Of a stretch of 64,000 nucleotides of DNA, positions 4,472-33,741 are shown one piece after another (position 1 is the stretch's first letter; every line of letters starts with the position of its first letter). Both the position numbers and the translations under genes were made by a program. Source of the stretch: an uncultured Dehalococcoidia bacterium. Its GTDB lineage: Bacteria > Chloroflexota > Dehalococcoidia > Lucifugimonadales > Lucifugimonadaceae. The stretch lies in assembly GCA_958295935.1 (NCBI GenBank), contig OY282385.1, positions 2,149,545 through 2,213,544 on the forward strand, written 5' to 3'. The notes below the pieces were generated by a model. It was given only the letters and a program-made list of their open reading frames with translations. It did not search any database and was not told where the DNA came from.

Positions 4472-4548
4472 CGACAAAACTCGCACCCTCAAGCCATCGC
4501 CAAAGACTCGCCGCTCAAAGCCATCGACAAAACTCGCACCCTCCCCAC
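4441..4548 (-). repeat. Duplicated MMPL start region
   Basis: The stretch around the start codon (GATGGCTTTGAGC plus flanks, with GGGTGCGAGTTTTGTCGATG) occurs twice in tandem, once at the true start and once upstream. The duplicate keeps an in-frame ATG, so it adds a possible second start. Confidence 0.75.
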
Positions 4549-4969
4549 CCCATCCACCGGCGCAACGGTTGTTCAACAACCCCCGCCGCGAGCTAGAAAA
4601 AACCGGTAACCCCTACATTCTACTTTCTCACAACCCCCACCGGGCCTCCACGAAAAACCCACCCGACGCCCCCCCCAACCACCGCGTCCACCGACGCAAC
4701 GGTCGTTCAACCAACCCCCGCCGCGAGCTAGAAAAACGCGATCCGCCCTCTGCTCCACCGCCCCCATCACCCACCACCGCCCGCATCATCCGGCGCCCCT
4801 ATCGTGACCCACCCGACGCCCCCCCAACCACCCCATTCACCGGCGCAACGGTCGTTTAACCAACCCCCGCCGCGAGCTAGAAAAACACGAAAAACCCACC
4901 CGACGCCCCCTAACCACCCCATTCACCGGCGCAACGGTCGTTCAACAACCCCCGCCGCGAGCTAAAAAG
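4549..4969. repeat. Boundary repeat array with GGTTGTTCAACAACC arms
   Basis: Four copies of CACCGGCGCAACGGTTGTTC, each followed by a C-rich stretch and GCGAGCTAGAAAAA or GCTAAAAAG. Cores lie near 4591, 4727, 4876 and 4961. In the first copy GGTTGTT and AACAACC form a 7-bp inverted repeat around one base. No gene was seen in these 420 bases. Confidence 0.85.
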
Positions 4970-19233: not shown

Positions 19234-19806
19234 ATAGCAAAAGATTACCGGGTCAACCGGCGAATACGCGCCCCCATCGTCAGAGTCATAAGGGGCGAAG
19301 AATCCGCCAGCTCGACCGTCATGCCCATACAAGAAGCCCTCAGGCTCGCAGATCAGGAGGGCCTCGATCTGGTAGAGGTGGCGCCCAACCAATCGCCGCC
19401 CGTCTGCAGACTGCTCGACTACGGCCGCTTCAAATTCATACAATCCAAGAAAGCAAAAGAAGCCCGAAGAGCATCCAAAGCAACCAACCAGCAGCGAGAA
19501 GTCAGGATGCGGCCCCGCATCTCCGACAACGACATGCAGTCGAAGATCAGAACCATAAAGGGACTCCTCGCAGAGGGCGCAAAAGTGCGAGTAGCCGTAC
19601 TGCTCAGAGGACGAGAAAACACACACCCGGAAGTCGCCATGAAGGTGCTCAGACGCGTCGCAGAAGGCGTATCGATCGAAGCCAAACTGGAAAGACCACC
19701 CACCAGGGAAGCACGCTCCATAGCCATCATCCTGGCCCCCTCGGGCAACCCGGTCGCCGGAAAGACCCCCGCACCCGCCGCCCAACCAAACCACACAGCG
19801 AGCTAG
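19234..19806 (+). CDS. infC: Translation initiation factor IF-3 with AUA start
   Basis: 190 residues. Family alignment requires the N-terminus at AKDYRVNRRIRAP, which is read from an ATA at 19234; no ATG, GTG or TTG is available in frame before it, and the first in-frame ATG (19321) would remove 29 conserved residues. Non-AUG starts in infC are a known means of autocontrol, because IF-3 itself rejects such codons. The N-domain carries VMPIQEALRLA and DLVEVAPN, the linker is Lys-rich, and the C-domain carries RPRISDNDMQSK and GRENTHPE. An Ala/Pro-rich tail ends in a stop (AGCTAGAAG) that is itself a repeat core. It heads the operon with rpmI and rplT. Confidence 0.93.
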   Translation: MAKDYRVNRRIRAPIVRVIRGEESASSTVMPIQEALRLADQEGLDLVEVAPNQSPPVCRLLDYGRFKFIQSKKAKEARRASKATNQQREVRMRPRISDNDMQSKIRTIKGLLAEGAKVRVAVLLRGRENTHPEVAMKVLRRVAEGVSIEAKLERPPTREARSIAIILAPSGNPVAGKTPAPAAQPNHTAS

Positions 19807-19929
19807 AAGAACATCCACCGTATTCACCGGCTCCAACACCGTTCAACCAACCCCCGCAGCGAGCTAAGAAACACCAACGTATTCACCCAGATCCAACGCC
19901 GATCACCAACCCCCGCAGTGAGCTAAAAA
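19804..19929 (+). repeat. Boundary repeats between infC and rpmI
   Basis: Two units of ATTCACCGGCTCCAACACCG-type text, each ending GCAGCGAGCTAAGAAA or GCAGTGAGCTAAAAAA. The first core carries the infC stop, and the last abuts the rpmI ATG. Confidence 0.85.
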
Positions 19930-20136
19930 ATGCCAAAATTGAAGACACATAGGGGCGCAAAGCGACGTTTCCACCTCAGCGGAGGCGGCAAGCTGCTCCG
20001 AACCAAAGGCCCCAAGAGCCACCTGCGCAGGAACAAGGCCAAGCGAGTGCGCCGTATACTGGCAGGCAAGGTCGGCCTCGACTCCAAGAAGCTGGGCAAG
20101 CGCATCCGTCAGGCCATATCCGGAGCGCGCCGGTAA
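19930..20136 (+). CDS. rpmI: Ribosomal protein bL35
   Basis: 68 residues, the full length of bL35, with KLKTHRGAKRRFHLSGGGK and GPKSHLRRNK. The ATG directly follows GCTAAAAA, with no Shine-Dalgarno site. It is the second gene of the infC-rpmI-rplT operon. A second copy of gene and leader follows 270 bp downstream. Confidence 0.95.
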   Translation: MPKLKTHRGAKRRFHLSGGGKLLRTKGPKSHLRRNKAKRVRRILAGKVGLDSKKLGKRIRQAISGARR

Positions 20137-20208
20137 AAGAACATCCACCACATCCACCGGCTCCAACACCGTTTACCAACCCGGGCAGCGAGCTAAAAAA
20201 CACCAAAA
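20137..20208 (+). repeat. Boundary repeat between the two L35 genes
   Basis: ACATCCACCACATCCACCGG, CTCCAACACCG, then GCAGCGAGCTAAAAAAC. It matches the leader of the first rpmI but the ATG position reads ACA. Confidence 0.85.
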
Positions 20209-20406
20209 TTGAAGACACATAGGGGCGCAAAGCGACGTTTCCACCTCAGCGGAGGCGGCAAGCTCCTACGAACCAAGGGCCCCAAGAGCCACCTGCGCAG
20301 GAACAAGGCCAAGCGAGTGCGCCGTATACTGGCAGGCAAGGTCGGCCTCGACTCCAAGAAGCTGGGCAAGCGCATCCGTCAGGCCATATCCGGAGCGCGC
20401 CGGTAG
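20209..20406 (+). CDS. rpmI: Second copy of bL35, start codon lost
   Basis: The residues from Lys5 to the C-terminus are identical to those of the first copy. DNA differences are few and synonymous (CTGCTC/CTCCTA, AAA/AAG). The original ATG is ACA here (20200-20202), with a stop codon two codons before it, so the first usable start is the TTG at 20209 (codon 4 of the first copy). The product would lack only three residues. It is either a translated second copy from a TTG start or a young pseudogene; synonymous-only change favours gene conversion or selection. Confidence 0.75.
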   Translation: MKTHRGAKRRFHLSGGGKLLRTKGPKSHLRRNKAKRVRRILAGKVGLDSKKLGKRIRQAISGARR

Positions 20407-20554
20407 AAGAAGCGGAAGGCGCCCACCGTCGGACAGGCCGCTAGAAAACAGCGCCAACGCCGTTCAACCAACCCCCGCAGCAAGCTAGAAGAGCATCCAC
20501 CGTGTCCACCGGCTCCAACGCCGATCAACAACCACCGCAGTGAGCTAAAAAACA
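20407..20554 (+). repeat. Boundary repeats before rplT
   Basis: Three cores: GCCGCTAGAAAAC (near 20441), GCAAGCTAGAAGAG (near 20483) and GCAGTGAGCTAAAAAAC (near 20541). The last ends 2 bases before the rplT ATG. Confidence 0.85.
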
Positions 20555-20911
20555 ATGGCAAGGGTTACTAGGGGACCGCACACCAGAAAGCGGCACAAGA
20601 AAATCTTGAAAGCGGTGCGAGGGCACCGAGGCTCCCGCAACAGCCGATACCGTTTGGCGAGGGAATCCCTCCTGCACGCCCTCGCATACTCCACCAGGCA
20701 CCGCAAGCTCAAGAAGAGGCAAAACCGCGCCCTCGCGATACTGCGCATAAACGCCGCAGCCCGTCAGAACGGAACCACCTACAGCGGCCTCATGCACGGC
20801 CTCAAACTCGCCGGAATAGAACTGGACCGAAAATCCCTCTCCGAACTCGCCGTAAGAGAACCCGAAACCTTCGCAGAAGTCGCACAAACCGCCCAAGCCG
20901 CCGCCGCGTAG
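20555..20911 (+). CDS. rplT: Ribosomal protein bL20
   Basis: 118 residues. ARVTRGPHTRKRHKKILK at the start, SRYRLARESLLHALAYS and the RINAAARQNG loop are those of bL20, a primary assembly protein of the large subunit. The ATG follows GCTAAAAAACA with no Shine-Dalgarno site. The stop TAG is the GTAG foot of a REP-like palindrome. It is the last gene of the infC operon; the palindrome behind it could help end or protect the transcript. Confidence 0.96.
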   Translation: MARVTRGPHTRKRHKKILKAVRGHRGSRNSRYRLARESLLHALAYSTRHRKLKKRQNRALAILRINAAARQNGTTYSGLMHGLKLAGIELDRKSLSELAVREPETFAEVAQTAQAAAA

Positions 20912-20932
20912 GGGTCGTTCGTGAACGACCCT
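20908..20932 (+). repeat. Perfect REP-like palindrome at the rplT stop
   Basis: GTAG, GGGTCGTTC, GT, GAACGACCC. The arms are a perfect 9-bp match. The TAG of the foot is the rplT stop. The same 25 bases recur at 52794. Confidence 0.85.
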
Positions 20933-20969
20933 GCCCACCCGCGAACGACCCTGCCGCAGCCCCCCAACC

Positions 20970-21275
20970 CCCGTATCCACCGGCGCAATGGTTGTTGAAC
21001 CAACCCCCTCAGTGAGCTAGAAAAAAGCGCCCGCGCAGCGCGCTAGAAGACCAACCACCGCATCCACCGGCGCAACGGTTGTTGAACCAACCCCCTCAGT
21101 GAGCTAGAAAAAAGCGCCCGCGCAGCGCGCTAGAAGACCACCACCGCATCCACCGGCGCAACGGTTGTTCAACCAACCCCCTCAGTGAGCTAGAAAAAAA
21201 GCGCACCGCCGGGCAGGCCGCCGGAAAAAAGCGCCAACGCCGTTAAACCAACCCCCTCAGTGAGCTAGAAAGAAG
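20970..21275 (+). repeat. Boundary repeat array, about 87-bp period
   Basis: Three to four units: ATCCACCGGCGCAACGGTTG, TTGAACCAACC, CTCAGTGAGCTAGAAAAAAG, then GCGCAGCGCGCTAGAAGACC. Unit starts lie at 20975, 21062 and 21148. It ends in the triple core GAAGCTAGAAAGAAGCTAGG that holds the stop of the hydrolase on the other strand. No gene. Confidence 0.88.
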
Positions 21276-22382
21276 CTAGAAAGAAGCTAGGTGGCGGTCG
21301 AAGAACCCCGCCACCCGATCAACGTACTCCGTGCGCCTCATACGGTAACCCTGCACGTGCCCGGCCCCCGGAACAATCCAAACACCGCTCCGGCCCGTAG
21401 GAGAATCCGGATCCGCCCCCACCGCGCGACCCAATATCCGGGCATGGCGCACCGGCACCATCGTATCATCCTCGCCGTGAACGATCAGCGCCGGAGTGTC
21501 CGACGACGCTATATCGCGGGCAGGCGACACCTCCTTCACGTCGAGACCGAACAGATACCGCGCCGCCAAGAGCATACCGGGCATGAACAGCCCCAGGAAC
21601 CGCCGCCCCCCCGTCATACCCTCACGCATCCTGAAAGACAGATCCGCAAACGAACTGTCCGCCACCACCGCCGCCGCCGTACCCGGATTCGCGCACGCCA
21701 TCAGCGCAACCGCGGCCCCAAGCGAAACGCCGTGAACGCCTATACGCGTCCGATCCACACCCATCGACACCAGAAAATCCAGAGCCCCAAGAAGATCCAG
21801 CCGCTCGAAATAACCCACCGAACTGCGCTCCCCGCCCGACTCGCCGCAAGCCCGCAAATCGAACATCAATATCCCAAAACCCCGGCACGCAAGATCCCTC
21901 ACCAGACCCAGCGCGCTCGCAGCCGGATTCGTCCGATTCGTACCGAAACCATGCACCATCACGATCCAACGAGCCCCCGCAGGAAAGAACCCACCCTGTC
22001 CACCGGCGCCAACCTCGTTCGACCAACCCCCGCCGTCAGCTGGAAAGCGCCCACCCTGTCCACCGGCGCCAACCTCGTTCGACCAACCCTCGCCGTCAGC
22101 TGGAAAGCGCCCACCCTGTCCACCGGCGCCAACCTCGTTCGACCAACCCTCGCCGCCAGTTGGAAAGAAACCACCCGGAGGAATGAGCCAACCCGTAAGA
22201 GACGCCGCCCCATCGCGGCTCATGAAAGCCGCCTCCGAAAAATCCAGACCCACCGAAGAAGGATCATCGCCGCTCCTCACCCGCACCACCCGCGTCAAAC
22301 CCGCGGCCATACCCGCAGAAACCGCCAGGTAAGCCCCGGCCGCAATCCCGCCCGCCAGCGCAACTCTATGCAACCATCCCAT
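21276..22382 (-). CDS. Alpha/beta hydrolase with in-frame repeat insert
   Basis: About 368 residues from the ATG at 22382, which has GGAG 8 bases upstream; an upstream TTG at 22445 is possible. One N-terminal membrane helix leads to a serine hydrolase domain with oxyanion loop VHGFGTN, nucleophile elbow HGVSLG, GEDD acid segment and GAGHV histidine. Between GWLIPP and the first core strand there are three near-identical 20-residue blocks (containing GWSNEVGAGGQGG), read from the same DNA that forms intergenic repeats nearby. Without the insert the domain would be of normal length. It is probably membrane-tethered; the substrate is unknown. The stop codon lies in a GCTAGAAAG core. Confidence 0.82.
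   Translation of the reverse strand: MGWLHRVALAGGIAAGAYLAVSAGMAAGLTRVVRVRSGDDPSSVGLDFSEAAFMSRDGAASLTGWLIPPGGFFPTGGEGWSNEVGAGGQGGRFPADGEGWSNEVGAGGQGGRFPADGGGWSNEVGAGGQGGFFPAGARWIVMVHGFGTNRTNPAASALGLVRDLACRGFGILMFDLRACGESGGERSSVGYFERLDLLGALDFLVSMGVDRTRIGVHGVSLGAAVALMACANPGTAAAVVADSSFADLSFRMREGMTGGRRFLGLFMPGMLLAARYLFGLDVKEVSPARDIASSDTPALIVHGEDDTMVPVRHARILGRAVGADPDSPTGRSGVWIVPGAGHVQGYRMRRTEYVDRVAGFFDRHLASF
21990..22169 (-). repeat. Three 60-bp units inside the hydrolase frame
   Basis: CCACCCTGTCCACCGGCGCC begins units at 21990, 22050 and 22110, an exact 60-bp period that keeps the frame. Each unit ends in GTCAGCTGGAAAG or GCCAGTTGGAAAG, a variant of the repeat core without the TAG. Confidence 0.92.
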
Positions 22383-22439
22383 CGCTTCAACTCCGACTTG
22401 CAGACCTGCGATCAAGCCCAAAGAGCCGATGCTAGCGCC

Positions 22440-22740
22440 AACCAAGCCCCGCTGGGCAAGCTGCTAGAAAAAAGCGCCAACTTCGTTCACCACCCCCGCC
22501 GCGAGCTAGAAAAAAGCGCCAACCAACCCCCGCCGGGCAGGCTGCTAGAAAAAAGCGCCAACTTCGTTCACCACCCCCGCCGCGAGCTAGAAAAAAAGCG
22601 CCAACCAACCCCCGCTGGGCAGGCTGCTAGAAAAAAGCGCCAACCTCGTTCGACCAACCCCCGCCGTCAGCTGGAAAGAAACCACCCTGTCCACCGGCGC
22701 AACGGTTGTTGAACCAACCCCCGCAGCGAGCTAAAAAATT
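22440..22740 (+). repeat. Boundary repeat array
   Basis: Five to six units alternating CCGCTGGGCAGGCTGCTAGA and CACCCCCGCCGCGAGCTAGA, each followed by AAAAAGCGCCAAC. One unit (from about 22641) matches the insert in the hydrolase. It ends GCTAAAAAATTAGAAAG, where the TTA is the cyoE stop. No gene. Confidence 0.88.
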
Positions 22741-23629
22741 AGAAAGACGCGTCCACCATCACCAGCGTGAACAGCAGCGCAAGATACAACAGAGAATAAC
22801 GGTACAGCGACCACGCCGCAGCCCGCGTCCGACTCAACGACAGCCGAACCGCATACCACGTCAAACCGGCCCCCAGAACCGCCGCGCCGCACAGGTAGAT
22901 CAAACCCATAGCGCCGCTCGCAACCGCCAGCAATAGCGAAAGCGTAGACACCAGGATTGAGTACAGCAGTATCGACTGACGAGTCCTTTCCTCACCCTCC
23001 ACGACCGGAAGCATAGGCACCTCCGCACGCGCATAGTCCTCCTTGATCATGATCGCAAGCGCCCAGAAATGGGGCGGAGTCCAGAAGAACACGATCGCAA
23101 ACAAGTACCACGCCGGCAACGACAACCCCCCGGTCACAGCGGCCCACCCAACCAGCGGAGGAACCGCCCCCGCAGCCCCGCCGATCACTATGTTGTGCAC
23201 CGTCGAACGCTTCAGAAGCGCCGTATACAGAACCACGTACAGCAGCGTACCCACCATCGCAAGACCCGCCGCAAGCGTGTTCGCCCCCACCGACAAAACA
23301 GCAAACGCGCCCGCATTCAGCAACAGGCCAAACGCAAGAGCGTTACGCGGATTCATACGCCCCGCAGCCACCGGACGGCGCTTCGTGCGCCCCATGCGCC
23401 GGTCCAGATCATCCTCCAGCCAGTGGTTCAAGGCGCTAGCCCCGCCGGACGCCATAGCCCCCCCGACCAGCAGCGCAGAAGCCACCAACGCATCGGGAAA
23501 CCCGCGAGCCGCCAGAACCGCGCCCGTAAGAGCCGTCAACAGAAGCAAAGACATGATGCGAGGCTTCGTCAGCGCAATATAGTCCGAAGCCAACTCCGCA
23601 AAGCTTTGCCTGTGTTCGCTAGTGGTCAT
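22739..23629 (-). CDS. cyoE: Protoheme IX farnesyltransferase (heme O synthase)
   Basis: 296 residues with about nine membrane helices of the UbiA prenyltransferase family. It adds a farnesyl group to heme B to form heme O. The first Asp-rich motif is visible as NHWLEDDLDRRMGRT, and the second region as YARAEVPMLPV. TKPRIMSLLL at the start is typical. The ATG at 23629 has GGGAGG 8 bases upstream. The start region reads GTCGTCGGATGACC, the same bases that end ctaA, so the two genes once overlapped by ATGA. Confidence 0.93.
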   Translation of the reverse strand: MTTSEHRQSFAELASDYIALTKPRIMSLLLLTALTGAVLAARGFPDALVASALLVGGAMASGGASALNHWLEDDLDRRMGRTKRRPVAAGRMNPRNALAFGLLLNAGAFAVLSVGANTLAAGLAMVGTLLYVVLYTALLKRSTVHNIVIGGAAGAVPPLVGWAAVTGGLSLPAWYLFAIVFFWTPPHFWALAIMIKEDYARAEVPMLPVVEGEERTRQSILLYSILVSTLSLLLAVASGAMGLIYLCGAAVLGAGLTWYAVRLSLSRTRAAAWSLYRYSLLYLALLFTLVMVDASF

Positions 23630-23646
23630 CCGACGACCCTCCCGCC

Positions 23647-23670
23647 GTAGGGGCGAATCGTGATCCGCCC
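23647..23670 (+). repeat. REP-like palindrome
   Basis: GTAGGGGCGAATCGTGATCC then GCCC, in the first junction unit. Confidence 0.8.
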
Positions 23671-23782
23671 CCCATGATCCGCCCCCCAACCACCGCATTC
23701 ACCGGCACAACGGTTGTTGAACAACCCCCGCCGTGAGCTAGAAAAAAGGTCATCCGACGACCCTCCCGCCGTATCGTCCGGC

Positions 23783-23808
23783 GTAGTGGCGAATCGCGAT
23801 TCGGCCCC
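23783..23808 (+). repeat. REP-like palindrome
   Basis: GTAGTGGCGAATCGCGATTC then GGCCCC. The inner arm GAATC/GATTC is perfect. Confidence 0.75.
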
Positions 23809-23892
23809 GGTGATTGCGCCCGCGCCCCCCAACCACCGCATCCACCGGCGCAACGGTTGTTGAACAACCCCCGCCGTGAGCTAGAAAAAAGG

Positions 23893-24840
23893 TCATCCGA
23901 CGACCCTCCCCACAGGCCAGGCCCAGGGCCTCAGCAACAACGCAAGCAACAACACCAGATCCGCCCAAAGAAGAGTCGCAAGACTCAGGTGAAGCGCGCG
24001 AGACCACTCATCGAACCCCGTCCAGGGATTCGCAGCCCCAACGAACATCTGCGCCAGCAAAAGCGCAGCCCCGGCCGCCGCCGCCCACCTCACCGCAGAA
24101 AACGACGCCCCCCCGCGCAAGACGCGCAGCGAAGCCGCAAATATCACCAACCCAACAAGCAAAGACACGATCCGGTGAGACATGTGCATCCACGCCAGAT
24201 TCGACTGCGGTACCACCGAACCACCGCACAGCGGCCAGGAAGGACACACCGCACCCGCGCCCCGCCAAACTATGTCAGAACCCGACAGAATAGCCACCAG
24301 AGCGGCCGCGCACGCCCACGCAACTATCTTCACGTGGTTCGACCCCCACACGAGCCCGCCCGACCCCGAGCCCCCGGGCCACGCAGCCGACGCAAACGCA
24401 AAACCCGTCAGAAACACCACCATCTCCGCAAGAACCAGATGCAACGTACGCAACGCCGGATCCAGATCGCTGAGAACCACCGCACCCCCTATACCCCCAA
24501 CCACCGCTATGAGCAGCAGAGCAGCCGTCGTAAAACCGCGACTCCCCACACCCCTCAGCCACACCCGAACCGCCGCCGCCAGCAACACCAGACCAACCAC
24601 CAAACCCGAAGTCCGGTGAGACCACTCGATCAACGCATGCTTCTCCAGCGGAGGCAGTACCCCCCCGTAACACAGAGGCCAGTCCGGACAGCCGTCCCCG
24701 GAACCCGTCACCCGCACCACGCCACCCAGCGTTATCTGAGCCACCGCGCCAACGAAGCAAACCGCCAGCAGCCACACCAGCAGCCTGTCCACCCCCGCCG
24801 ACCCGACGCCTCCTGACGACGAAACAGTCGAAGCCTTCAA
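23893..24840 (-). CDS. ctaA: Heme A synthase (COX15/CtaA)
   Basis: 315 residues, eight membrane helices in two similar halves. It oxidises heme O to heme A for cytochrome oxidase. Each half has a conserved Cys pair in a loop: GCPDWPLC (Cys51, Cys57) and CPSWPLC. Heme-ligand histidines lie in EWSHRTSG, TLHLVLAE, MSHRIVS and ALHLSLA. This double-Cys form fits a Gram-positive or Chloroflexota-type CtaA. With cyoE downstream it supplies heme A; no oxidase subunit gene is in the window. Confidence 0.93.
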   Translation of the reverse strand: MKASTVSSSGGVGSAGVDRLLVWLLAVCFVGAVAQITLGGVVRVTGSGDGCPDWPLCYGGVLPPLEKHALIEWSHRTSGLVVGLVLLAAAVRVWLRGVGSRGFTTAALLLIAVVGGIGGAVVLSDLDPALRTLHLVLAEMVVFLTGFAFASAAWPGGSGSGGLVWGSNHVKIVAWACAAALVAILSGSDIVWRGAGAVCPSWPLCGGSVVPQSNLAWMHMSHRIVSLLVGLVIFAASLRVLRGGASFSAVRWAAAAGAALLLAQMFVGAANPWTGFDEWSRALHLSLATLLWADLVLLLALLLRPWAWPVGRVVG

Positions 24841-28032: not shown

Positions 28033-28232
28033 CGGACTACACGCGAGTCCAGCAATAACCCCGGTAATGCAGGTTGGAGCTCCCGCGCGCCGCGGACTAC
28101 ACGCGAGTCCAGCAATAACCCCGGCAGTGCAGGGCGGAGCCCGCGCGCCCCACGGACTACACGCGAGTCCGGCAATAACCCCGGTAGTGCAGGACGGAGC
28201 TCCCGCGCGCCGCGGACTACACGCGCGGCCAG
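28033..28232 (-). repeat. 60-bp tandem copies of a gene 3' end
   Basis: CGGACTACACGCG lies at 28033, 28093, 28153 and 28213, an exact 60-bp period. The last copy is the coding end (YYWPRV) of the PH-like gene; the three others are downstream non-coding copies with a few changes. Confidence 0.95.
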
Positions 28233-28777
28233 TAATAGCCCCGGTAGTGCAGCGCCACGGTCTCGCGCCAGGCGCGAAGAGCCATATCCTGCCGCATACT
28301 CTCAACCCTCGCGGCCAGATCCTCAGCCGCATCCGCATCGCCATTGTCCACCTCGCCCTCGACGACCCCGCCCGGCGTCACGAAGCGAAGAACCAACCCC
28401 GGCATCCTGAACAGATAATCAGCCAGCAGAACCAGAGCGATGAACCCAACCACCCCTCCCACCACGGCCCCCACCGTCTCGTTGCGAGTCACCTGCCAAA
28501 CCCCTACCGCGGCCAAAACGCCGATGAACCCCCATATCGCACTCCGCCTGTCCCGCTCCCGCCGATCCAGCTTCACCGCCACTACGTCCGACAACCTCGC
28601 CGCGGCAAACCCCCCACTCGCACCCCCCGCGTACAGTATCCGCTCATTCGTCAGAATGAAACGAGCGCCGCCCGAGCCCGGAGCCGTCAGAACCTCCGAC
28701 TCCCCGGGAAGCATGTCCAGCAGACCCGGCTCCTCGTCCGCCCCGTCCCGCTCCTCGGCGCGCGGCTCGACCGCCAT
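28217..28777 (-). CDS. Membrane protein with PH-like N-terminal domain
   Basis: 186 residues. The segment ARFILTNERILYAGG with the following beta-strands is typical of bacterial PH-like domains that begin membrane proteins of unknown role. Two helices follow (about 83-103 and 105-125), then an acidic loop and a C-terminal helix. GAGGGG lies before the ATG at 28777. It is downstream of the DUF2851 gene on the same strand, probably in one transcript. The 3' end is copied three more times downstream. No function assigned. Confidence 0.72.
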   Translation of the reverse strand: MAVEPRAEERDGADEEPGLLDMLPGESEVLTAPGSGGARFILTNERILYAGGASGGFAAARLSDVVAVKLDRRERDRRSAIWGFIGVLAAVGVWQVTRNETVGAVVGGVVGFIALVLLADYLFRMPGLVLRFVTPGGVVEGEVDNGDADAAEDLAARVESMRQDMALRAWRETVALHYRGYYWPRV

Positions 28778-31851: not shown

Positions 31852-33741
31852 CTAGTTGTTCGATGAAAACCAATCGGCGATGTTCCACAACTGGCTGTCC
31901 CAGGCGTTGAACCGCACCCCCTGCAGGTCATTCGACACAGCCGAAACTATCCCCCGGTTCACCAGCGGAATCTCGTAGTAGCTCTGCACGTGAACGTCGT
32001 TCAGCCGCTTCACCAGAGCCTCCCGCTCAGCGCCCGCCGGCGTATGCTCCAGCTCCGCAAACAGTTTCTCATACTCCGAGTTGCAGGAACGAGCATTGTT
32101 CCCGCCCCCCCAGTTGTTATCCCGCGTCTGAACGTGGTCGCACAGCCCGGCCGAAAGAGCCCGCTGAGGGTCCACCCCGGAACCCGACGTATACATCTGC
32201 ACGTCCGCGAAGAACCGCCGGTAAGACGCCTCGGCGTCCGCCACGGGATCCCCCCCAAAGAAGACCCCCGCATCATGCCGTACCAGCTCCGTCTCTATAC
32301 CTATCTCGCGCCACCAGCCCCGGATCATCTCCTGCGTATCCTGCCGGATCGAATTCACGGTAGTCTGATAGGAAACGCGCAAAGGCGTCCCCATGTACTC
32401 GCGAACCCCGTCCCCGTCCCCGTCCACCACGCCGTTATCATCCAGCAGCCTCCTCGCCCCGTCGACGTCCTGCGCCAGGCAGCCGTCGTTCGCCGTCGAA
32501 GCGTAATTCGCAGGCGCGGCAATCACGTTGCAAGTCGGCCTCGCGGCGAAGCCATACAGCCGATCCGAAATGGCCGCACGATCGATCGCCATAGACATCG
32601 CCTCCGGGATCGGCCTGAACGTCAGGAACGGATGCGGATTCGCCCCGTCCAGGTACTCCGAACGATCCTCGCCCAGACCCGGATCCGGATTCGTCTGGTT
32701 CACCACCAGACGCTCCACCTGACTCGCAAACGCAGCGGCCACCCGGCCAACCCCGCGGGCCTCCATCCCCTCCAGAAGCTCCGGCGCGACCTGCAGGTTC
32801 CACCCATACTCCGCATCGCCCAGCTCCAGTACGGACCGCGCAGCCCCGGCCGCATCGCCGCCGCCCCGCAGAACCACCTCGTCGAAGTAAGCCGCCTCAC
32901 CCCGGTAGAACGGATTGCGCTCGTAGACCGCGCCCGAATCGGGCGTAAACTCGACGATCCGATAGGCCCCCGTGCCCACGGGCGCAACGTTCTGCGCCTC
33001 GCAGCCCCTCGCGGCAGCCCCCACGCAGTCCGCAAACTGCTCGCGGCTGAGTATCGGCATACTGGCGCCCACGAAAGCCGTATACGGATAGGGCGTAGGA
33101 CCATCGAAGGTTATCCGAACCGTACGATCGTTCGGAGCCTCCACCGAAACGATGCCGTGGAAAACGTCCCGGCTCGTACAGCCCGCAGCCTCATCCAGAC
33201 AGTAGCGCCAGGTGAAGACAACGTCCTCCGCGGTCATCGCGCTGCCGTCCGACCACGTCAAACCCTCTCTCAGCCGCCACGTAACAGTCAGCAGATCCTC
33301 TGAAATCCCCCCGTTCTCCAGCGTCGGAATCTCAGCCGCCAACCTCGGCGCGAGGCCCCCCTCCGGGTCGTAGCTCGCCAGAGGCTCCAGCGTAACCGCC
33401 CCCGCGTCCGCATCCTTATCGCCCCCGGAGAGGTACGGAATAGGCAGAGAAGGCGCCTGCCAGTACACAAGCGTAAGTCTTTCTGGCCGGGGCTCCGGCC
33501 GAACGGTTTCCGGTGCAACGGCAGCCGACGGCGAGGGCTCCGGCCGAACGGTTTCTTGTGCAACGGCAACCGACGGCGAAGGCTCCGGCTGAACGGTTTC
33601 TTGTGCAACGGCAACCGACGGCGAAGGCTCGCCCCCGCGCCCGCACGCGGCGACCACTAGGGCCAGCGCCAACAACGCTCCGACTAGAAGCCGGCTCGCC
33701 GGTAGAACCGGCCGGCGAGCCGGCGGTGAACCGGTGTGCAC
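31852..33741 (-). CDS. ABC transporter substrate-binding lipoprotein (family 5)
   Basis: 629 residues. A signal peptide ends in the lipobox VVAAC (Cys33), so the protein is lipid-anchored. After an 85-residue stalk comes the peptide/nickel-type binding fold (WRLREGLTWSDGSAMTAEDVV, PVGTGAYRIVEF). The stalk holds three 15-residue blocks (EPSPSVAVAQETVRP) from a 45-bp tandem repeat. Family ligands are di- or oligopeptides, or sugars in some lineages. No permease or ATPase gene is nearby, so it is an orphan here. The GTG start at 33741 gives the basic N-region. The stop lies next to GCTAAGAAAAC. Confidence 0.88.
   Translation of the reverse strand: MHTGSPPARRPVLPASRLLVGALLALALVVAACGRGGEPSPSVAVAQETVQPEPSPSVAVAQETVRPEPSPSAAVAPETVRPEPRPERLTLVYWQAPSLPIPYLSGGDKDADAGAVTLEPLASYDPEGGLAPRLAAEIPTLENGGISEDLLTVTWRLREGLTWSDGSAMTAEDVVFTWRYCLDEAAGCTSRDVFHGIVSVEAPNDRTVRITFDGPTPYPYTAFVGASMPILSREQFADCVGAAARGCEAQNVAPVGTGAYRIVEFTPDSGAVYERNPFYRGEAAYFDEVVLRGGGDAAGAARSVLELGDAEYGWNLQVAPELLEGMEARGVGRVAAAFASQVERLVVNQTNPDPGLGEDRSEYLDGANPHPFLTFRPIPEAMSMAIDRAAISDRLYGFAARPTCNVIAAPANYASTANDGCLAQDVDGARRLLDDNGVVDGDGDGVREYMGTPLRVSYQTTVNSIRQDTQEMIRGWWREIGIETELVRHDAGVFFGGDPVADAEASYRRFFADVQMYTSGSGVDPQRALSAGLCDHVQTRDNNWGGGNNARSCNSEYEKLFAELEHTPAGAEREALVKRLNDVHVQSYYEIPLVNRGIVSAVSNDLQGVRFNAWDSQLWNIADWFSSNN
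33483..33632 (-). repeat. 45-bp in-frame repeats in the lipoprotein stalk
   Basis: Three units of GGCTCCGGCYGAACGGTTTC, then TTGTGCAACGGCAACCGACG, 45 bp each, just after the lipobox. The frame is kept. Confidence 0.92.

What the first reader, a model, noticed from the sequence alone, without database searches (positions are those of the whole stretch)
21990..22169. Intergenic repeat units inserted in frame in an alpha/beta hydrolase
Three 60-bp units, nearly the same as those in the flanking intergenic array (22440-22740), sit between two core strands of the hydrolase and code for three 20-residue Gly-rich blocks. The core CTAG has become CTGG, which removes the stop codon. This is a direct case of a non-coding repeat becoming protein without breaking the gene.
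Basis: seen in the sequence. Interest (0 to 1): 0.76.

Follow-up and report, generated by a model that had tools for sequence, protein, structure and literature searches.

The report
Intergenic repeat captured inside an enzyme
In one Chloroflexota bacterium, a short non-coding DNA repeat that litters the spaces between neighbouring genes also sits, three times over and in frame, in a variable loop of a membrane-anchored hydrolase, a modest and apparently tolerated new case of junk DNA becoming protein.

Summary
The insert is real. Window 21990-22169 holds three 60-bp units (94-95% alike between neighbours), homologous to the spacer array 500 bp upstream (85% over 96 bp, E 1.9e-25). They encode three 20-residue Gly-rich blocks in an intact, syntenic alpha/beta hydrolase. 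Nine syntenic orthologues carry 12-19 residues between two invariant tryptophans; this protein carries 73, or 13 once exactly 180 bp are left out. The repeat family is found only in this genome, lies on one strand (32:0 in the pattern search) whatever the direction of the genes, is clustered, and shows no inverted repeats, so it is not a MITE or a Rickettsia palindromic element.

CTAG to CTGG did not remove a stop: in the gene's frame the core reads TTT-CTA-GCT (F-L-A), eight intergenic copies are open in that frame, and an intergenic sibling already has CTGG.

Most likely a spacer unit was copied into the loop, amplified by tandem duplication, and kept because 60 is a multiple of 3, the frame is open and the loop is variable. 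The direction of the last transfer and any function are unproven. It is a new variant of a known kind (RPE, ERIC/RU in-frame insertions).

The parts
21276..22382 (-). Alpha/beta hydrolase CDS, 368 aa, N-terminal hydrophobic helix; S220 (21723-21725), D306 (21465-21467), H342 (21357-21359). An in-frame TTG extends the ORF to 22445.
21990..22169 (-). In-frame insert of three 60-bp units (60 residues)
22110..22169 (-). Unit 1 (first in the protein): FFPTGGEGWSNEVGAGGQGG
22050..22109 (-). Unit 2: RFPADGEGWSNEVGAGGQGG
21990..22049 (-). Unit 3: RFPADGGGWSNEVGAGGQGG, core closest to the intergenic sibling
22162..22176 (+). GGAAAGAAACCACCC at the right edge of the array; elsewhere in the window exact only in the intergenic sibling (22673-22687); a 1-mismatch copy is at the left edge (21982-21996)
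22434..22738 (+). Intergenic repeat array between the hydrolase start and the ctaB stop
22637..22697 (+). Intergenic sibling of the in-gene unit, with the same CAGCTGG core
20964..21290 (+). Units of the same family between rplT and the hydrolase 3' end
23690..23912 (+). Two units of the family between ctaA and ctaB
19783..20550 (+). Units of the family around infC, the duplicated rpmI, and rplT
4538..4968 (+). Four units of the family in and near a spacer 17 kb away

Best explanation
A 60-bp unit of a strand-fixed, non-palindromic minisatellite that has expanded the spacers of this roughly 45-kb neighbourhood was copied into the gene for a membrane-anchored alpha/beta hydrolase, at the variable turn between two core strands just before the HG motif. 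Copying most likely went by replication slippage or template switching from the array 500 bp upstream, through the shared tract GGAAAGAAACCACCC. The unit then duplicated in tandem to three copies. It survived because the unit length is a multiple of 3, its minus-strand frame is open, and the loop is expected to lie away from the active site. Shown: homology, in-frame position, absence in orthologues, intact core and catalytic residues, single orientation. Inferred: the copying mechanism, the direction of transfer, translation, membrane anchoring, and neutrality.
For: Unit homology E 1.9e-25. The in-gene unit equals one whole period of the intergenic segment 22637-22697, with 42 identical bases in a row. 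Orthologues match at residues 1-70 and 135-366 only, with synteny IF3-L35-L20/hydrolase/CtaB/CtaA conserved. They have 12-19 residues between W65 and W139 against 73 here and 13 without the 180 bp. Spacers are enlarged only in this genome: L20-hydrolase -15 to 28 bp in relatives (leaving out L008, whose contig has a run of N) against 364, hydrolase-CtaB -40 to 111 against 356. The family is absent from relatives above chance, in one orientation 32:0 regardless of gene direction, with no inverted repeats. The same neighbourhood shows other local tandem duplications: rpmI 270 bp, and the 3' end of gene 28217-28777.
Against: No population or raw-read data; one genome of the genus. No expression data. 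The sibling spacer copy could have come from the gene. The 15-bp tract may be part of the insert rather than a pre-existing homology. Single-sequence structure predictions failed, so the loop's place in the fold rests on sequence motifs and general knowledge of the fold.
Confidence: 0.7

Rival explanations
1. Reverse flow: the CTGG variant arose or was amplified inside the gene, and the intergenic sibling at 22637-22697 was copied from the gene.
For: The CAGCTGG core is confined to the in-gene units and that one spacer copy among the family units aligned. A coding-to-spacer tandem duplication does exist nearby: the last 60 bp of gene 28217-28777 repeated downstream.
Against: Both halves of the in-gene unit are found across about 20 other spacer copies, including spacers 17 kb away; no orthologous gene carries the sequence.
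Confidence: 0.15
2. The unit is a small mobile element (MITE, or Rickettsia palindromic element type) moved by a transposase in trans.
For: Dispersed copies in several spacers; the in-frame effect is as in RPE and ERIC/RU.
Against: No inverted repeats, one orientation only (32:0), clustering in a small part of the chromosome, tandem arrays of varying period.
Confidence: 0.07
3. The insert has been exapted: the Gly-rich blocks do something useful (binding, oligomerisation, surface spacing).
For: Three in-gene copies remain alike and the frame is intact.
Against: Similarity is as well explained by recent duplication; no near relatives for a selection test; four-fold sites of the insert do not follow the host gene's strong G/T bias, though there are few independent sites.
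Confidence: 0.1
4. Assembly artefact.
For: Repeat arrays are a known source of assembly error; the genome is a single contig of 95% completeness from an unnamed source.
Against: The in-gene copies differ from each other and from spacer copies; the reading frame is preserved on both sides; divergent arrays recur in many spacers.
Confidence: 0.04

Closest known systems
Rickettsia palindromic elements (RPE; Ogata 2000, 2002, as reviewed in PMC10969869)
   Same: A repeat also found outside genes is inserted in frame in ordinary enzymes and tolerated.
   Different: RPEs are palindromic, about 150 bp (as the review states), dispersed in many genes and shared between species; here the unit is 60 bp, non-palindromic, strand-fixed, local, tandem, in one gene of one genome.
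ERIC/RU-1, RU-2, RU-3 intragenic fusions of enterobacteria (PMC2759123)
   Same: Intergenic repeat units whose open frames become fused to genes.
   Different: RUs are 103-168 bp, described as MITE-like, and in the passages read mostly extend gene ends; here three tandem units sit inside a domain.
Coding minisatellites (in-frame tandem repeats)
   Same: Tandem in-frame units whose length is a multiple of 3.
   Different: Here the same unit family is demonstrably intergenic in the neighbourhood, so a likely source can be named.

Membership tests
Rickettsia palindromic element / MITE | Terminal inverted repeats or palindrome | tested here: not met
   0 inverted pairs in 19700-24100
Rickettsia palindromic element / MITE | Insertions in both orientations, dispersed over the genome | tested here: not met
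   32 forward, 0 reverse, mostly 2.14-2.19 Mb; short core 34:2
Rickettsia palindromic element / MITE | In-frame insertion in a gene whose orthologues lack it | tested here: met
Coding minisatellite | Head-to-tail units, period a multiple of 3, open frame | tested here: met
   period 60, three copies, no stop
Alpha/beta hydrolase | Fold-family profile match | tested here: met
   Pfam Abhydrolase_1 1e-11, Peptidase_S9, Hydrolase_4 above cut-off; solved relatives, best E 3.8e-27 with the orthologue profile
Alpha/beta hydrolase | Nucleophile elbow GxSxG, acid, His | tested here: met
   G-V-S220-L-G, D306, H342; D306 and H342 invariant in the alignment. One orthologue (L002) has Ala in place of the Ser
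Alpha/beta hydrolase | Enzymatic activity | not testable with these tools
   needs expression and assay

The most novel reading that the evidence does not exclude
A replication-strand-linked copying process, acting in a chromosomal domain with extreme strand asymmetry (four-fold-site GC skew down to about -0.77 in genes of both orientations), seeds non-palindromic minisatellite units into spacers and genes alike, always on the same strand; the hydrolase insert is one product that selection let through.
Probability: 0.2. Interest if true: 0.65.

Novelty: new variant of a known kind. Interest (0 to 1): 0.42.

Why it matters
It is a clear case of a non-coding repeat becoming protein: likely source array, target gene, empty-site length and orthologues can all be seen. 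It shows that such capture does not need a palindromic mobile element. It also marks a chromosomal domain where local duplication turns spacer into coding sequence and coding sequence into spacer, which could be used to measure how often such events happen.

Tried and rejected
Stop-removal by CTAG to CTGG: rejected by frame analysis. MITE/RPE-like mobility: rejected by orientation and lack of inverted repeats. A native long loop: rejected by orthologues. AlphaFold on the whole protein and on the loop region, both single sequence: pLDDT 35 and 36, unusable, so no fold search was run. Relatives in viral contigs by protein profile and by unit DNA: none. Genome contigs with the hydrolase: none; with L20 only distant named hits, one of which groups the genome with a Chloroflexi MAG. 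The Genome Research RPE paper is not held.

Full report
Observation. The window lies at 2149545-2213544 of a single 2.75-Mb contig. The hydrolase CDS is 21276-22382 on the minus strand. Tandem Repeats Finder reports a 60-bp x 3.1 array at 21982-22167. In the gene's frame it reads FFPTGGEGWSNEVGAGGQGG / RFPADGEGWSNEVGAGGQGG / RFPADGGGWSNEVGAGGQGG with no stop. Searching the insert against the own genome finds the spacer array just upstream of the gene (E 1.9e-25, 85% over 96 bp) and weaker copies in neighbouring spacers. A direct alignment shows 42 identical bases in a row with the intergenic copy at 22637 onward. This is not chance.

The stop-codon claim is wrong. The core CCAGCT sits at codon offset 0, so an ancestral CTAG would read TTT-CTA-GCT, Phe-Leu-Ala. 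Of the intergenic units aligned, eight with CTAG (or CTAA) cores (4713, 4862, 19849, 22491, 22572, 22716, 23723, 23866) are fully open in the homologous frame; where a stop does occur there it comes from CAC-TGA or from other parts of the unit, not from CTAG. The spacer sibling at 22637-22697 already has CTGG. No stop had to be removed by that change.

The insert is specific to this genome among those compared. Relatives of the same family align to residues 1-70 and 135-366 only. Orthology is secured by synteny: IF3-L35-L20 on one side and CtaB, mostly with CtaA, on the other in ten relatives. Between the invariant W65 and W139, nine relatives have 12-19 residues; this protein has 73, and 13 if exactly the 180 bp are left out, giving LIPPGGFFPAGARW. 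The tenth, in G020, is frameshifted in the same loop. The core matches Pfam alpha/beta hydrolase families and solved esterases and hydrolases; S220, D306 and H342 are present. By general knowledge of the fold, the turn before the strand that leads to the HG motif lies at the end of the sheet away from the catalytic residues; this could not be checked by modelling.

The repeat family. The consensus is roughly CCACCGCATCCACCGGCGCAACGGTTGTTCAACCAACCCCCGCCGCGAGCTAGAAAAA (read by eye). A 22-base core pattern with up to 3 mismatches has 32 forward and 0 reverse hits in the genome (control 1), mostly in 2.14-2.19 Mb; the short core GCTARAAAAA has 34 and 2. Relatives have none above chance (the second has no positive control). 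Units keep the same strand next to plus-strand genes (infC, rpmI, rplT) and minus-strand genes (hydrolase, ctaB, ctaA). There are no inverted repeats. Spacers in this segment are several times longer than in relatives. So I infer that the family spread locally by copying on one strand, not by transposition.

How the unit got in. One period of the spacer segment 22637-22697 is the in-gene unit. The tract GGAAAGAAACCACCC occurs exactly only at the right edge of the in-gene array and in that spacer copy, with a one-mismatch copy at the left edge. I infer template switching or slippage through this tract, followed by tandem duplication; whether the tract was native to the gene or came with the insert is open. 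The reverse flow is possible: the last 60 bp of gene 28217-28777 have been repeated three times into the spacer, so coding sequence does become spacer here.

Wider context. Concatenated IF3-L35-L20 groups the genome and its relatives with a Chloroflexi MAG (support 0.985). Four-fold sites show that the plus strand is C- and A-rich in genes of both orientations, most strongly around 2.13-2.18 Mb, where the repeats are dense. This suggests a replication-type asymmetry and may explain the single orientation, but the link is untested.

Comparison with the known. In-frame capture of repeats is established for Rickettsia palindromic elements (reviewed in PMC10969869) and for enterobacterial RU/ERIC units (PMC2759123). 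The present case works like them in outcome, but fails two defining features of palindromic/MITE elements (inverted repeats, both orientations). It is best called a coding minisatellite seeded by an intergenic minisatellite: a new variant of a known kind. Translation, direction and function remain unproven.

Noticed in passing
28036-28276 (-): The last 60 bp (20 codons with the stop) of gene 28217-28777 are repeated three times downstream, each still ending in RV-stop: coding sequence turned into a spacer array.
   Followed up: partly
19870-20409 (+): rpmI (ribosomal protein L35) is tandemly duplicated with its spacer (270 bp, 248 identical). The proteins are identical except that the second copy has ACA in place of ATG; the CDS has 6 differences in 207, the rest of the unit about 16 in 63.
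   Followed up: partly
G000 2.07-2.27 Mb, peak in window 1-36000: Extreme strand asymmetry at four-fold sites in genes of both orientations (plus-strand GC skew about -0.5 to -0.77, AT skew up to 0.94), coinciding with dense tandem repeats; the sign changes several times at sampled points elsewhere on the chromosome.
   Followed up: partly
L003 (G020:C5:130695-130759): The orthologous hydrolase in G020 is frameshifted in the same loop where this genome has its insert.
   Followed up: partly
L002 (G011 hydrolase): The nucleophile motif reads GFALG, with Ala in place of the catalytic Ser.
   Followed up: no
33491-33630 (-): A 45-bp x 3 in-frame repeat in the linker after the N-terminal signal-like region of a peptide-binding-like protein (EPSPSVAVAQETVQP).
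   Followed up: no
L050:35-628 (G000:C1:2129579-2130172): A gene for an N-terminally hydrophobic protein followed by many acidic DDDIDTPTPT repeats.
   Followed up: no
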